Positions 3,713 through 25,081 of a stretch of 33,463 bases of DNA are shown here, piece after piece (position 1 is the first letter of the stretch; every line of letters begins with the position of its first letter). Under the pieces are notes generated by a model. The model did not search any database, was not told the origin of the DNA, and saw only the letters and a program-made list of their open reading frames with translations. The DNA is from Pirellulales bacterium (GTDB lineage Bacteria; Planctomycetota; Planctomycetia; Pirellulales; JAEUIK01), in assembly GCA_019745975.1 (NCBI GenBank), contig JAIESQ010000098.1, forward strand, positions 1 to 33,463. Direction: 5' to 3'. The position numbers and the translations under genes are program-made.

Positions 3713-5530
3713 ATGGCTGCCAAGACCCCTCGAGGATTGAACATGATCCGTCGGTTGGATTCTGTAGCCGGGGTCTGTGACCCCGGATTACGCGGCGAAT
3801 CTCCGGCCTCACAGAGGCCGGCTACAGGACTTCGACAGAGCGCGACCTTTCGGTTTAGCTCGCGGCGGTTTCGCGGACTCGCGGTCGTGGCGTCGTTGGC
3901 GGCGCTGGTCGTCGCCGGCAGTTCGCTGCCGGCCGTGTGGGCCTGCCCGTTTTGTAGCGCCGTCTCGGTGACACTGGGCGAAGAGCTGAAGGGAGCCACG
4001 GCCGGCGTGATCGTGAAACTGAAGAAGCTCCCCGAGCCGCAGTCGGCACCCGACCCAACGAAGCCGCCAGTGCTCTCCGACAGCCTAGCGCGGTTCGAGA
4101 TCGTGCAGGTGCTCAAGGGGGCCGACGTCGAGATCGAAACGCCGGCGGGGCTGAAGAAGCTGGCCGACGTTCGCGAGATTGACGTCACCTATTTTGGCCA
4201 GGACGAAATCGGGCGGCATTTTCTGATCATGGGGATCGACGCGCCGAAGATCGCCTGGAACACGCCGATCGCGCTCACCGAGCGGGCCGTGGCTTACGTG
4301 AGCAAGATGCCTGGCCTCCCGGAGACCGGCCCCGATCGGCTGGTCTACTTTCAAGAGTATCTCGAGGACCCGGAAGAGCTGATCGCCCGCGACTCGTACG
4401 ATGAGTTCGCCAAGTGCACCTACATGGAGATCAAAGGGCTGAAAGATCGCATGCACCACGACAAGCTCGTGGCCTGGATCAAATCGCCGCAGGTGACGCC
4501 GAGCCGACGCCGGCTGTATTTGTGCATGTTGGGCGTGTGCGGCAACGCCGACGATCTGCCGATGCTCGAAGAGACGATCCGTTCGGACAACCGCGATCTG
4601 CAGACCGCGCTCGACGCGGTGATCGGCGCCTACCTGATGCTCAAGGGAGAGTCGGGTGTGCCGCTCGTCGAGGAGCGGTTTCTCACAAAGAAAGATGCCG
4701 ACTACACCGATACCTACGCGGCGATTACCGCCATCCGCATCTTGGGGCAGGAAGACCCGGAGCAGACCGGCATTCCCCGCGCGCGGCTGATCGAGGCGCT
4801 CCGGCACATGCTCGACCGTCCGCAGTACGCCGACCTGGTGATCGCCGACCTGGCGCGGTGGGAAGATTGGGGTTCGATGGATCGGCTGGTCGCGCTGTTC
4901 AAGAACGCCACTGACGAGACAAATTGGGTGCGCGTGCCGGTGATTCATTTCCTCAAGGCCTGCCCGCTCCCCGAGGCGAAAGCCCACATCGACGAATTGG
5001 CCAAGATCGATCCCGACGCGGTGAAGCGCGCCAATAGCTTCTTCCCGCTGGCGGCGCCGAAAGTTCCGCCGCCGAGCGAAGCGACGACCGACGCGGCCAG
5101 CGGCGCGACCGCACCGGGCAGCGACACCACGGGGAGCGGCGCCGCCTTGACTCCCTCCGGCGCGGCAGCAGGCGACGACATCCCGCTACCCCCGCCGCCA
5201 GTGGCCGATCCCGAAGACGGGCCGGTCGCCGTGGATCCTTCGACGACAACCGCCGACGTGGCAGCCGCCATGGCAGCCGATGCGATTGACGAACAACCGG
5301 CGGTAGCCGCGACCAACGAAGGCAACAAGACGAGCACCGCGGTGGCGACGACCAAGTCGCCGGCCGACGAACTCGAGTCTGGCGAGGAAGAAGAGCAGGC
5401 CTCGGCTCCGCAACCGTTACCGGCGATCGCCACCTGGAAAATGGTGGCGATTGCCTTGGCGGCCGCCGCCGCGCTGTTGGCGCTGTACTTCGTGATCCTG
5501 GGCTGGCAGCGCCGGCTCGCGCGATCGTAG
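3713..5530 (+). CDS. Secreted, C-terminally anchored CPFC-motif protein, paralogue of the gene at 7114-8400
   Basis: I assign no enzymatic function. ATG 3713 is preceded by AGAGG at a good distance; ATG 3743, with GAGGA, is an equal alternative. A hydrophobic signal segment (about residues 54-76) ends in VWA, and the predicted mature protein begins with CPFC (Cys78, Cys81). A domain of about 380 residues follows, shared with the product of 7114-8400: compare the helical repeats around FLKACPLPEAKA here with YLSACPSAKAKA there. Next come an Ala/Thr/Pro-rich acidic linker (about 455-570) and a C-terminal membrane span (WKMVAIALAAAAALLALYFV) with an RR-containing tail. The domain would therefore sit outside and be tethered. 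Oddly, residues 17-39 are encoded by a 66-bp double-hairpin repeat that keeps the frame. Confidence 0.75.
   Translation: MAAKTPRGLNMIRRLDSVAGVCDPGLRGESPASQRPATGLRQSATFRFSSRRFRGLAVVASLAALVVAGSSLPAVWACPFCSAVSVTLGEELKGATAGVIVKLKKLPEPQSAPDPTKPPVLSDSLARFEIVQVLKGADVEIETPAGLKKLADVREIDVTYFGQDEIGRHFLIMGIDAPKIAWNTPIALTERAVAYVSKMPGLPETGPDRLVYFQEYLEDPEELIARDSYDEFAKCTYMEIKGLKDRMHHDKLVAWIKSPQVTPSRRRLYLCMLGVCGNADDLPMLEETIRSDNRDLQTALDAVIGAYLMLKGESGVPLVEERFLTKKDADYTDTYAAITAIRILGQEDPEQTGIPRARLIEALRHMLDRPQYADLVIADLARWEDWGSMDRLVALFKNATDETNWVRVPVIHFLKACPLPEAKAHIDELAKIDPDAVKRANSFFPLAAPKVPPPSEATTDAASGATAPGSDTTGSGAALTPSGAAAGDDIPLPPPPVADPEDGPVAVDPSTTTADVAAAMAADAIDEQPAVAATNEGNKTSTAVATTKSPADELESGEEEEQASAPQPLPAIATWKMVAIALAAAAALLALYFVILGWQRRLARS
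3762..3827. repeat. Double-hairpin palindromic repeat, copy 1 (inside a coding region)
   Basis: The unit runs from CTGTAG to CTACAG. Inside are two perfect 8-bp stems with three-base loops: CCGGGGTC-TGT-GACCCCGG (3768-3786) and CCGGCCTC-ACA-GAGGCCGG (3803-3821). Copies 2 and 3 are at 27681-27736 and 29049-29103. This copy is 66 bp, exactly 22 codons, has no in-frame stop, and lies between the start codon and signal sequence of the CPFC protein gene. Confidence 0.85.
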
Positions 5531-21103: not shown

Positions 21104-21276
21104 TCACGCCGGTCGGCTGACACATCGTCGTCAGTGCCGCACGCCTGCCGGTCCTTTCTCGATCGTCGGCGATGCGCGACAAAGCGCGAGACCTTCGCCG
21201 CAGCGCGCCGGGACGCTAGACTGCGTTGGCCCGCCAACTTCGACGGCCCGTTCTCAGTGCTACCCGACGACATCGC

Positions 21277-22590
21277 ATGAATGACGCGCCTGAGGAGATT
21301 TCGCCCACAGTGCCTTCCGCCGGCCCCCCTGTGGCGCCGGCAGACGGCTGGTCGGGCGACGACACTGAGCCACCGCCAGGTAACGCCTATGAAGTGATCC
21401 GGTCGCCGAATTTCCGCCGCTATCTCGTCGGCAACTTCATCGGCGTGTTGGGCATGCAGATGCAGACCTTCACGCTGGGATACGAAATCTACGAGCGCAC
21501 CAATTCAAAACTCGCCTTGGGGTTCGTGGGCCTGGCGCAAGTTGTGCCGGTGATTGCCTTGGCCTTGGTCGCCGGCCATGTCGCCGACCACTTCAGCCGC
21601 AAGCACGTGCTCATGGTGTGTGTATTCTGTTTGGCGCTCGTGTCCGCGGCGCTCGTGCTCATCTCGCTGCGGCAAGCGCCTGTTGCGCTGATCTACGTCT
21701 GTCTGTCGCTCAATGGCGTAGCGCGGGCGTTCTTGCAGCCGGCCAAGGGGTCGCTGCTGCCGCTGATCGTGCCGCGATCGCAGTTCGCGCATGCGGTTAC
21801 CTGGCACACGGGCGGTTTTCACCTGGCGGCGGTGCTTGGTCCCGCGATTGGCGGTTGGGTCGTCGCCGGGACCACGCGCCCGGCGTTTGTCTATCTGCTC
21901 GATTTGCTGGCATCGCTGTTCTTTCTGGCGATGCTCGCGCGCATCTCGGTGCCGACCAAGGAGGCCGCCAGCGGCGCCCTGTCGCTGCGCACGCTGGCTG
22001 CCGGCATCGAGTTCTTGTGGCGCACCCGCATTCTGCTGGCCGCCATTTCGCTCGATATGTTCGCGGTACTCTTGGGGGGCGCGGTCGCGTTGTTGCCAGT
22101 CTACGCCAAGGACATTCTGCAGGTGGGCCCCGAAGGGCTTAGTTGGATGCGCGCCGCGCCGGCCATCGGGGCGCTGGTTACTGCCTTTCTGATCGCGCAT
22201 TTGCCCCCCATGCGCAAGGCCGGTTCGCTGCTGCTTTGGTCGGTGATCGGCTTCGGCATCGCGACCGTAGTGTTCGGCTTGTCGCGTTCGTACGGCTTGT
22301 CGCTGGCGATGCTCTTTCTGACCGGCGCGCTCGACAACATCAGCGTGGTAATTCGCCACACTTTGCTGCAGCTTTCGACGCCGAACGAAATGCGCGGGCG
22401 CGTGGCGGCGGTCAACGGCCTGTTCATCTCGTCGTCGAACGAATTGGGAGCGTTCGAATCGGGGCTCGTCGCCGAACTGACCACGCCCACGATTTCTGTC
22501 GTCAGCGGCGGGCTGGGCACGATCGTGGTCGTCGCCGTAATCGCCTGGCTCGTGCCCGAGCTGCGCAGGTACGGCCGCCTGGGTAGCTAA
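21277..22590 (+). CDS. MFS transporter, EntS/DHA3-like exporter
   Basis: The 437-residue protein has about 12 hydrophobic spans. The loop after the second span carries the MFS motif A in the form GHVADHFSRKHVLM. FLQPAKGSLLPLIVPRSQFAHAVTW and the late ELGAFESGLVAEL resemble the EntS/multidrug-exporter branch (MFS_3). Such proteins export small molecules by proton antiport; the substrate is unknown. ATG 21277 was chosen because the hydrophobic core then starts after a Pro/Asp-rich tail of about 45 residues. A terminator lies 24 bases after the stop, so this is the last gene of its transcript. Confidence 0.9.
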   Translation: MNDAPEEISPTVPSAGPPVAPADGWSGDDTEPPPGNAYEVIRSPNFRRYLVGNFIGVLGMQMQTFTLGYEIYERTNSKLALGFVGLAQVVPVIALALVAGHVADHFSRKHVLMVCVFCLALVSAALVLISLRQAPVALIYVCLSLNGVARAFLQPAKGSLLPLIVPRSQFAHAVTWHTGGFHLAAVLGPAIGGWVVAGTTRPAFVYLLDLLASLFFLAMLARISVPTKEAASGALSLRTLAAGIEFLWRTRILLAAISLDMFAVLLGGAVALLPVYAKDILQVGPEGLSWMRAAPAIGALVTAFLIAHLPPMRKAGSLLLWSVIGFGIATVVFGLSRSYGLSLAMLFLTGALDNISVVIRHTLLQLSTPNEMRGRVAAVNGLFISSSNELGAFESGLVAELTTPTISVVSGGLGTIVVVAVIAWLVPELRRYGRLGS

Positions 22591-22614
22591 GCCCAAACTA
22601 GCGGCGACGCCAGC

Positions 22615-22636
22615 ATCGGGCGGTGCCGATTTTTTC
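22615..22636 (+). terminator. Terminator of the MFS gene
   Basis: ATCGG-GCGGTG-CCGAT (22615-22630) is followed by six T (22630-22635). It has the usual rho-independent form and sits 24 bases after the MFS stop codon. Confidence 0.7.
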
Positions 22637-22927
22637 TTTTTCGTGAACCACTGAAACCCGAGTTGCGTCTTACGAGTACTGATTCGGCGGGTATTGGTTG
22701 ATGCAAAGCAAGCAAGATGCTTTTTGAGGTGATGATTTCCATGAGCTTCTGGCAATCGAGTGTGACCGAACCGCTTGGCGGTGCGGAACTTTTCGCACCA
22801 CGAGCCTGCTTGCGCGCGCGAGGCGATGTACCGTCGAGCGCCGCACAGCAAAGCGCTTCCCCAGCGGGGAACACAACCTCGCCCAAACTGCGCTTGTGAC
22901 ACGCGGCCGCCGACAAGGCGAACACTC
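22637..22927 (+). other. Non-coding stretch, possibly a small RNA or transcript leader
   Basis: No convincing reading frame is present. Two clear hairpins are GGTGCG-gaactttt-CGCACC (22780-22799) and TTCCCC-AGC-GGGGAA (22857-22871). The stretch lies between the MFS terminator and a second strong terminator on the same strand, which would have nothing to terminate unless transcription starts in here. No promoter could be placed with confidence. Confidence 0.35.
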
Positions 22928-22963
22928 AAAGGCCTGCTGTCCGAGCGACAACAGGCCTTTTTT
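22928..22963 (+). terminator. Strong rho-independent terminator
   Basis: AAAGGCCTG (22928-22936) pairs perfectly with CAGGCCTTT (22952-22960); the stem continues through TGTC/GACA around the loop CGAGC. Six T (22958-22963) follow. The T tract makes it a plus-strand terminator. It lies 338 bases after the MFS stop and 943 bases before the EF-Tu-like start. Confidence 0.85.
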
Positions 22964-23900
22964 GTTGCTCGTGGCTGAGCCCCGAGGCCACGGGCTTGAG
23001 CGCAACGATCGGCAAGCGCGGATTCGTAGCGATGCAAGCCTGTCGCCTCGCGCCTCAGGCCCAACTGCGCCCTGAGTGCGCGCCGATCTTTGACAATTAC
23101 CAAGAGACAAGTCCGTGGTGTCGCCCGGACTCTAAACCGATTTGCTCGGCACGGGCGGTCGGCTCCCGTAAGGGAGATAGACGAAAGGCTGTCCTTGGCT
23201 CCGGCGTTCATTCGTCGGCGGCCGGGGCAATGAAGCTGGCGGATAACCGTGTGGGAACGGGAAGCCGCTTGGCAACTGAGGGCGTGAGGCGCTGCCCACC
23301 AGCGCAGAGCTGCTCGGAAGATCACGGATTTGATGCGGTTATCGTGAAACGTGCCCGTCGGCTGACGCCGACTTCCGCGAAGTGTCCGGGAAGTTGCCAA
23401 TCTTTGGAGCGGCAACAAGCCGTGTGTGCAACAGAGTCGAAGTGCCTACAGCGATCGCCGCAAGGCGGTCGCGCTGCCCGAAAGGGGATCGTGGAACTGC
23501 TTCCCGGAGCAGCGAAGCGATCGAGCGCGGCGAGAGTGTCCGACGGGAAACTTGAGCCTGACCCAGAAGATTCGTTGCACTACAGCCTGCTGTTGGGCGA
23601 TGGAGACATCAACAACAGGGGTAAAGGCGGTGCAGGGTCTAACACGCCCGTGTGCAGACCTCGTGAGCGAGCTCGCGAGGGTCATCGCCAGGCCAGATAG
23701 AGCTTGCGCTAAAGCTGGCCTATTTCAAGAAGGCGGTTCATTCGCGCTGGATCCGCGTCAACGCGGCAAAGCCGGGCTGACGAACCGCTGTGTTGATTCT
23801 TCACTGCTCTGGCGTCACTCGTTGTGCAAAAAGATCTCGTGATCGAGCGGTGAGAATCAGTCACCCAAAGAGTCTCCCCGCAAGAGGAGACAGGGAGCAG
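22964..23900 (+). ncRNA. Candidate large structured RNA / leader of the EF-Tu-like gene
   Basis: About 940 bp without a credible gene, packed with stems. They include AGTCCG/CGGACT (23110-23131), CTCCC-GTAA-GGGAG (23163-23176), GATAACCG/CGGTTATC (23242-23249 with 23336-23343) closing a branched region, GTCGGC-TGAC-GCCGAC (23357-23372), GTTGCC/GGCAAC (23393-23416), a 9-bp stem with GCAA loop (23451-23472), CCC-GAAA-GGG (23477-23486), CCTGCTGTTG/CAACAACAGG (23586-23619, one mismatch) and CCGCG-TCAA-CGCGG (23753-23765). The loop of the 23586-23619 hairpin holds GGCGATG (23596-23602), complementary to CATCGCC (23683-23689): a pseudoknot. A 14-bp stem with one bulge (23795-23809 with 23845-23858) and GTCTCC/GGAGAC (23872-23891) precede the ribosome binding site AGGGAG (23892-23897). 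Three GNRA loops read correctly only on this strand. A TTGACA (23091-23096) is a possible promoter element. I cannot match it to a known RNA class. Confidence 0.5.
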
Positions 23901-23905
23901 TTCCC

Positions 23906-25081
<1,176 letters not shown>

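What the first reader, a model, noticed from the sequence alone, without database searches (positions are those of the whole stretch)
22964..23900. Long structured RNA candidate upstream of an EF-Tu paralogue
About 0.9 kb without a gene holds more than ten strong stems, three capped by GNRA loops on the plus strand only, a branched domain closed by GATAACCG/CGGTTATC, and a pseudoknot (GGCGATG 23596-23602 with CATCGCC 23683-23689, through the loop of a 10-bp hairpin). This density resembles large bacterial RNAs such as GOLLD, ROOL or HEARO/omega RNA, but I cannot place it in any of them.
Basis: partly seen in the sequence, partly recalled or inferred. Interest (0 to 1): 0.85.

Follow-up and report, generated by a model that had tools for sequence, protein, structure and literature searches.

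The report
New large RNA from tRNA arrays
A stretch without genes in a planctomycete genome encodes a roughly 620-letter folded RNA that several related bacteria carry as the second element of large tRNA gene clusters, and it matches no RNA family in the public library searched; its function is unknown.

Summary
It spans about 23110-23725, plus strand. Nine full-length copies (73-85% identical, window included) and one truncated copy were found in planctomycete genomes of two orders. A fold predicted from six copies holds in three held-out copies (171/175, 169/174, 171/175 pairs). With pseudoknots added, 66 of 183 pairs show double compensatory changes (shuffles 27.7 +/- 3.6; 0 of 500 reach it). 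It is not a conserved leader of EF-Tu: 0 of 80 loci with EF-Tu relatives hold it. In five genomes the RNA (truncated in one) lies inside a tRNA array, directly after tRNA-Phe. The window, G004 and G841 copies keep the arrays' leader hairpin, and G004 and G932 keep damaged tRNA genes, so the RNA appears to outlive its array. A boxA-like antitermination signal precedes it in 6 of 10 loci; that 12-mer occurs four times in this genome: 16S leader, 16S-23S spacer, tRNA array, and here. No Rfam family matches it. Best reading: a new family of tRNA-array-associated large RNA that works as RNA, like GOLLD and ROOL but without detectable relation to them. Expression and molecular function are untested.

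The parts
22928..22963 (+). Leader hairpin with T-run (AAAGGCCTGCTGTC / GACAACAGGCCTTT), like the hairpin that stands before tRNA-Phe in the tRNA arrays
   Evidence: Inverted repeat; window 22864-22967 is 78% identical to the leader of this genome's own tRNA array (C135); similar hairpins in 9 of 11 upstream regions scanned (similarity judged by eye), seven aligned. The tool's own terminator scan did not list it
23087..23098 (+). boxA-like antitermination site TCTTTGACAATT
   Evidence: Four exact copies in this genome: 16S leader, 16S-23S spacer, tRNA array and here; control pattern 0; boxA-like site upstream of the RNA in 6 of 10 loci
23110..23725 (+). Large structured RNA (about 616 nt), the conserved element
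   Evidence: Nine full-length copies (window included) plus one truncated copy; alignment A4; covariation; no Rfam match over it
23110..23131 (+). 5' hairpin (23110-23115 / 23126-23131)
   Evidence: 100% of cells paired, one pair with changes on both sides, five invariant
23148..23355 (+). Long-range pseudoknot 23148-23152 / 23351-23355 (hairpin loop to distant strand)
   Evidence: 100% of cells paired, 2 of 5 pairs with changes on both sides; parallel-strand control has no run of 6 or more with 2 such pairs
23201..23234 (+). Hairpin 23201-23206 / 23213-23218 whose loop 23207-23212 pairs with 23229-23234 (pseudoknot)
   Evidence: 4 of 6 pseudoknot pairs with changes on both sides
23333..23425 (+).
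   Evidence: 97.2% of cells paired, 2 of 8 pairs with changes on both sides
23385..23508 (+). Possible pseudoknot TCCGGGAA 23385-23392 with hairpin loop TTCCCGGA 23501-23508
   Evidence: 8 pairs, 98.6% of cells paired, seven pairs invariant, so no covariation either way; in the control scan one such long run exists outside the fold against none in the parallel control
23451..23486 (+). Two GNRA-capped hairpins (23451-23472 loop GCAA; 23477-23486 loop GAAA)
   Evidence: GNRA in 9 of 9 copies with GCAA/GAAA exchange; first hairpin 5 of 9 pairs with changes on both sides, second invariant
23585..23622 (+). Long hairpin capped by GAGA (inner stem 23599-23602 / 23607-23610)
   Evidence: 100% of cells paired; inner stem 2 of 4 pairs with changes on both sides, outer stem none
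23626..23689 (+). Closing helix 23626-23632 / 23683-23689, the conserved partner of CATCGCC
   Evidence: 7/7 paired in 9 of 9 copies, 2 pairs with changes on both sides
23690..23725 (+). 3' hairpin followed by a T-rich tail, possible terminator or 3' end
   Evidence: 4 of 6 outer pairs with changes on both sides; T-rich tails visible, weak in the window copy, and not reported as a terminator

Best explanation
The element is a stable, untranslated RNA of about 620 nt belonging to a new family carried by planctomycete tRNA arrays. In its home position it is the second gene of a tRNA array: leader hairpin, tRNA-Phe, boxA (in some), the RNA, then tRNA-Glu/Pro/Ile and more. Shown here: homology, a pseudoknotted fold under purifying selection with the + strand as the folded one, position in arrays, retention where the neighbouring tRNAs are lost or damaged, and no shared protein-coding neighbour among the loci looked at. 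Inferred: it is co-transcribed with the array under boxA/Nus antitermination, as rRNA is; flanking tRNA processing helps to free it; and it acts in trans as RNA, like GOLLD and ROOL, as a scaffold or oligomeric particle serving the mobile tRNA cargo (possibly anti-defence or translation support). In this window the tRNAs have been lost and the RNA remains, beside an EF-Tu paralogue by accident of location.
For: Full-length copies in G004, G026, G358, G090, G098, G658, G841 and G932 besides the window. Fold predicted from 6 copies keeps 171/175, 169/174 and 171/175 pairs in 3 held-out copies; against their nearest relative these show 19, 19 and 10 compensatory double changes and 4, 3 and 4 broken pairs. 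Pseudoknotted fold: 97.2% of cells paired, 66 of 183 pairs changed on both sides against 27.7 +/- 3.6 in shuffles and 8-15 in slid structures. + strand consensus fold -229.6 against -148.5 kcal/mol for the - strand. tRNA-Phe directly upstream and a tRNA downstream in G026, G358, G090, G098 and, with a truncated RNA, G376. Leader hairpin like that of the arrays also upstream of the window, G004 and G841 copies. tRNA-Phe with an insertion in G004 and G932, tRNA-Glu relic in G932. boxA shared with the rRNA operon. GOLLD precedent: inside a 32-tRNA cluster of Mycobacterium aubagnense (PMC6582537, passages); GOLLD and ROOL near tRNA islands and forming cages (PMC12286853, passages).
Against: No expression data and no promoter found by a simple scan. 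The family is rare: 6 strong hits (own included) in 396 genomes of the order with the covariance model, own plus one in a phylum sample of 392. boxA-like sites are absent in 4 of 10 loci. The G658 copy has no tRNA in 19 kb and no leader hairpin, so array origin is not shown for it. G004 still has two tRNA-Ala genes about 0.9 kb downstream and G841 a tRNA-Cys about 1.3 kb downstream, and Rfam still scores the G004 tRNA-Phe relic above its cut-off (33.2 against 29 bits), so 'lost array' is graded, not absolute. Trans action, oligomers and anti-defence are analogy only. The pseudoknots were found and counted on the same alignment; the number of conserved complementary runs outside the nested fold is no higher than in a parallel control (49 against 48 of length 6 or more), only the covarying ones are (3 against 0).
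Confidence: 0.72

Rival explanations
1. A highly diverged GOLLD or ROOL RNA that the Rfam models miss.
For: Same kind of place (tRNA islands), ornate fold; an HNH gene in this genome's own array, as in mycobacterial GOLLD arrays.
Against: No match to any Rfam family over the RNA at E up to 5 (window), or up to 3 in eight other loci. [quoted passage not shown]
Confidence: 0.1
2. A cis-acting element of the tRNA array: an attenuator or processing element that controls read-through from tRNA-Phe into the rest of the array.
For: Fixed position as second element after the leader hairpin; boxA upstream in 6 of 10 loci; 3' hairpin with T-rich tail.
Against: Larger and more constrained than an attenuator needs (inference); kept in the window, G004, G658, G841 and G932 without an intact array around it; this genome's own array on C135 lacks it.
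Confidence: 0.09
3. A selfish ribozyme-like element (intron-like) that inserts next to tRNA genes.
For: Patchy distribution; arrays with and without it (this genome's C135 array has none); compact pseudoknotted fold.
Against: No group I, group II or other ribozyme model matches; one full-length copy in each positive genome; position after tRNA-Phe is the same in the five arrays; the RNA tree pairs the copies of families f1 and f6 with full support and f15 with 91/96, f21 being unresolved.
Confidence: 0.07
4. A cis-regulatory leader (riboswitch-like) of the EF-Tu paralogue downstream.
For: Same strand, RNA ends 180 nt before the start codon in the window.
Against: None of the 80 fetched loci encoding relatives of this EF-Tu (the best 80 of a capped list, among them Pirellulales at 68-69% identity, some with flanks cut short by contig ends) holds the RNA; other copies sit before tRNAs, a YCII-domain gene or unrelated genes.
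Confidence: 0.03
5. A guide RNA of a nuclease (HEARO/omega-like).
For: HNH gene in this genome's C135 array, with weak matches to PtuB and Cas9 HNH models.
Against: That HNH gene lies on another contig, away from the RNA; among the flanking genes that I selected for scanning at other copies none was HNH/IscB-like; no HEARO match in the Rfam scans.
Confidence: 0.02

Closest known systems
GOLLD RNA
   Same: Large, ornate, non-coding; in mycobacteria lies within a tRNA cluster with tRNAs on both sides and an HNH gene (PMC6582537 passages); often near tRNA islands (PMC12286853 passages)
   Different: No Rfam match; conserved along its length; same position after tRNA-Phe in the five arrays seen; found here in planctomycete genomes, not in the phage records (blastn) or viral contigs (exact patterns only) searched; no tRNA found inside it
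ROOL RNA
   Same: Similar size class (recalled, about 600 nt), multiple pseudoknots, near tRNA islands (PMC12286853 passages)
   Different: No Rfam match; no phage or prophage copy seen here
tRNA array units with HNH genes (Mycobacterium)
   Same: Dozens of clustered tRNAs, HNH gene inside, structured RNA inside some (PMC5966550 and PMC12803027 passages)
   Different: Six of six planctomycete arrays seen share a leader hairpin and begin with tRNA-Phe; in 3 of 4 whose end was seen a Band_7/SPFH gene lies among or just after the last tRNAs
rRNA operon leader boxA
   Same: Exact 12-mer shared with this genome's 16S leader and 16S-23S spacer
   Different: Here it precedes a non-ribosomal RNA

Membership tests
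GOLLD | Match to the Rfam covariance model | tested here: not met
   No Rfam family overlaps the RNA at E up to 5 (window) or 3 (eight other loci)
GOLLD | Location in or near tRNA clusters | tested here: met
   5 of 10 loci inside arrays, one of them with a truncated RNA
GOLLD | Homo-oligomeric nanocage | not testable with these tools
   Needs cryo-EM
ROOL | Match to the Rfam covariance model | tested here: not met
ROOL | Encoded in phages or prophages | tested here: inconclusive
   None in 50,697 phage records by blastn; 5 exact-pattern scans of viral contigs gave only short chance matches; a phage-integrase-family gene lies near this genome's RNA-less array
HEARO/omega RNA | Adjacent IscB/IsrB-like HNH nuclease gene and Rfam match | tested here: not met
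   No such gene among the selected flanking genes scanned; no Rfam match
Group I / group II intron | Match to intron models | tested here: not met
EF-Tu leader riboswitch | Conserved position upstream of the gene | tested here: not met
   0 of 80 EF-Tu-relative loci hold the RNA in the flank fetched
boxA antitermination site | Same sequence in the rRNA leader and spacer of the same genome | tested here: met
boxA antitermination site | NusB/NusE binding and antitermination | not testable with these tools
   Needs a reporter assay

The most novel reading that the evidence does not exclude
A third, unrelated class of tRNA-island RNA that, like GOLLD and ROOL, assembles into a large RNA-only particle, here in planctomycete chromosomes rather than phages, transcribed with rRNA-type antitermination, and useful enough to the host that it is kept after its tRNA array decays.
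Probability: 0.22. Interest if true: 0.92.

Novelty: new variant of a known kind. Interest (0 to 1): 0.76.

Why it matters
Large structured bacterial RNAs of unknown function are few, and two of them (GOLLD, ROOL) share the odd habit of living in tRNA islands. A family with no detectable relation to either, in another phylum and with the same habit, suggests that tRNA arrays repeatedly recruit such RNAs, which makes the question of what they do for the array testable by comparison. Copies that survive while their tRNAs are lost or damaged separate the role of the RNA from tRNA supply. The boxA link suggests an rRNA-like transcription mode. The nine-copy alignment with named pseudoknots is enough to design constructs for probing and cryo-EM.

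Tried and rejected
EF-Tu leader: rejected because neither side of the adjacency is conserved. Protein gene: rejected, because stops occur in all six frames of all nine copies and the five ORFs tested have no Pfam match. Long-range helix 23111-23119/23321-23329 of the RNAalifold fold: dropped for the two local hairpins 23110-23131 and 23322-23347, which covary while it does not; both could be alternative states. The count of 213 G-U against 15 A-C cells is not used for the strand, since the fold was predicted on the + strand; the two-strand comparison replaces it. In that call the - strand fold also shows 45 of 152 pairs changed on both sides (57 of 175 on the + strand), as expected when most + strand pairs are mirrored; the energies and the covariation terms separate the strands.

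Short blastn matches (20-40 nt): those on C195 and G008 lie inside reading frames; the others were not followed and are treated as chance. Covariance-model hits G120 and G995 (26.7 bits, against 156-178 for the nine full copies, six of which built the model): treated as chance; no tRNA in 15 kb around G120, G995 not looked at beyond a blastn with one copy that found nothing. Viral contig hits L105, L136 and L137 share only the short pattern. Plasmids: no match. The tmRNA that ARAGORN reports in the C135 array overlaps tRNA genes and is taken as spurious. Promoter scan of 22580-23960: none found.

Rows dropped: G376 (truncated RNA) is left out of alignment A4 and all pair counts. Coverage: the genome searches used 1,997 of 2,000 allowed genome look-ups, with overlaps between calls, so no single prevalence figure is given.

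Full report
What was checked. The interval 22964-23900 lies between an MFS transporter gene (21226-22590) and an EF-Tu paralogue (23906-25081). Five overlapping ORFs, two on the + and three on the - strand, have no Pfam match. ARAGORN finds no tRNA in the window, and Rfam has no match at gathering score or over the RNA at E up to 5 (the two weak matches listed lie upstream of it). Folded alone, the + strand scores z -5.05 and the - strand -2.45, each against 20 shuffles.

Homologues. blastn in 57 relatives gave 9 genomes with any match at E <= 0.01; long matches only in the own genome, G004 (83%) and G026 (75%). In 396 genomes of the order, 7 had a match at E <= 1e-5, including the own genome and a truncated copy in G376. 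A covariance model of the 3' 154 positions (R1, built from six copies) gave 6 strong (own included) and one weak hit in 396 genomes of the order, the own genome plus G658 in 392 of the phylum, G658 and G841 in 170 of G658's order, G358 and G932 plus one weak hit in 159 of a family, two known copies in 43 of another family, and 6 strong (own included) plus 2 weak in 381 of the class. These sets overlap. Nine full-length copies result: the window, G004, G026, G358, G090, G098, G658, G841 and G932, 73-85% identical. The nearest EF-Tu relatives are Pirellulales, so the window is probably from that order (inference).

The fold. RNAalifold on six copies gave 176 pairs, 44 with a double compensatory change. 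Projected (175 pairs) onto three copies not used for it, 171/175 (G658), 169/174 (G841) and 171/175 (G932) pairs form. Against each one's nearest relative there are 19, 19 and 10 compensatory double changes and 4, 3 and 4 broken pairs. On all nine copies 57 of the 175 pairs change on both sides; random re-pairing with matched columns gives 17.0 +/- 3.3 (maximum 29 in 1000). The consensus fold of the + strand has -229.6 kcal/mol with a covariation term of 17.75, that of the - strand -148.5 with 2.43, which favours the + strand as the folded one.

Pseudoknots. A scan for conserved complementarity outside the nested fold found 23207-23212/23229-23234 and 23148-23153/23350-23355, both covarying, the covarying local hairpin 23322-23327/23342-23347, and the nearly invariant 23385-23393/23500-23508. 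The mere number of such runs is not above a parallel-strand control (49 against 48 of six or more), but three have two or more covarying pairs against none in the control; the invariant run rests on one against none. The trimmed full structure pairs 97.2% of cells; 66 of 183 pairs change on both sides, against 27.7 +/- 3.6 in shuffles (0 of 500 reach it) and 8-15 in slid structures. The pseudoknots were chosen on the same alignment, so their counts are favourable by construction.

GATAACCG/CGGTTATC is fully paired in 3 of 9 copies (6-7 of 8 pairs in the rest), against 7 of 9 for 23333-23340/23418-23425. GGCGATG/CATCGCC is fully paired in 5 of 9 (6 of 7 in the rest), against 9 of 9 for 23626-23632/23683-23689; the GATG of GGCGATG closes a GAGA-capped stem that covaries. 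The GNRA loops are right and conserved.

Where it lives. In G026, G358, G090 and G098 the RNA stands between tRNA-Phe(GAA) and the next tRNA of an array; in G376 a truncated copy does so. The G358 array holds 33 predicted tRNAs in the 18 kb read downstream. This genome has its own array on contig C135 without the RNA. These six arrays begin with a leader hairpin followed by T's. A similar hairpin stands upstream of the RNA in the window (22928-22963), in G004 and in G841, but not in G932 or G658 (similarity judged by eye from the listed hairpins). G004 and G932 carry a tRNA-Phe relic upstream, each with an insertion of about 20 nt, and G932 a tRNA-Glu relic downstream; nothing above 60 shuffles was found at the window, G841 or G658. 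Rfam scores the G004 relic 33.2 bits, above its cut-off of 29, and the G932 relic 24.4, below it; ARAGORN lists neither. That they are non-functional is my reading. G004 has two tRNA-Ala genes about 0.9 kb downstream and G841 a tRNA-Cys about 1.3 kb downstream; G658 and G932 have no ARAGORN tRNA in the 18-19 kb read. So four of the five copies outside intact arrays show a trace of one, and the RNA was kept while tRNAs were lost or damaged.

boxA. TCTTTGACAATT ends 11 nt before the RNA. It occurs four times in the 7.0 Mb genome, with 0 matches of the control pattern: about 225 bases upstream of the 16S fragment, in the spacer after tRNA-Ile and tRNA-Ala and before 23S rRNA, in the C135 tRNA array, and here. 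This is the form of the rRNA boxA (E. coli form recalled). boxA-like sites precede the RNA in 6 of 10 loci: exact in the window, G004, G026 and G376, one-base variants in G358 and G841, none in G090, G098, G658 and G932.

EF-Tu. None of the 80 fetched loci encoding relatives of the paralogue holds the RNA (best 80 of a capped list, some flanks short). Near other copies lie tRNAs, a YCII-domain gene (G004), WD40/cytochrome and nitroreductase genes (G658), PPK2 (G841), or ATPase and cellulase-like genes (G932), as far as the selected genes were scanned.

What is known. GOLLD and ROOL lie near tRNA islands, form nanocages, and have no established function (PMC12286853, passages). GOLLD lies inside a 32-tRNA cluster that also holds an HNH gene in Mycobacterium aubagnense and is expressed at a low level (PMC6582537, passages). 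Array units are considered a putative antidefence system (PMC12803027, passages) and often hold HNH genes (PMC5966550, passages). boxA regulation beyond rRNA is known in gamma-proteobacteria (PMC5725501, passages). In the listings of my searches of the held open library I saw no paper on tRNA arrays or a large RNA of this kind in planctomycetes; most subscription papers are not held.

Verdict. A real, conserved, pseudoknotted RNA, absent from Rfam and associated with tRNA arrays, is well supported. That it acts in trans as an RNA particle or anti-defence cargo is inference by analogy.

Noticed in passing
L111:6009-6857, L122:11467-12594, L107:5245-6507: A Band_7/SPFH-domain gene lies among or just after the last tRNAs of the planctomycete arrays in G358, this genome (C135) and G090; in G098 the next gene scanned is a PLD-domain protein instead.
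   Followed up: partly
L122:9369-10133 and L122:2747-3919: This genome's C135 tRNA array holds an HNH endonuclease gene and lies near a phage-integrase-family gene, recalling mobile mycobacterial arrays.
   Followed up: partly
L005:2424-2516 (-) and L134 about 4551-4642 (+): The tRNA-Phe relics upstream of the RNA in G004 and G932 carry insertions of about 20 nt at different sites of the tRNA; both contain CGCGGGCACCG, perhaps a small mobile palindrome.
   Followed up: no
window 23906-25081: The EF-Tu paralogue keeps all three EF-Tu domains but has an unusual switch I region ([19 protein letters not shown] where EF-Tu normally has an RGITI motif, recalled), so it may not be an ordinary elongation factor.
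   Followed up: no
L107:2736-3907, L111:4601-5515: Gaps of about 0.9-1.2 kb inside the tRNA arrays; the one ORF tested there (L111:4670-5476) has no Pfam match, so they could hold further RNAs.
   Followed up: no
L122:5898-5909: The C135 tRNA array carries its own exact boxA between tRNA-Lys and tRNA-Gly, suggesting rRNA-type antitermination of whole arrays.
   Followed up: no
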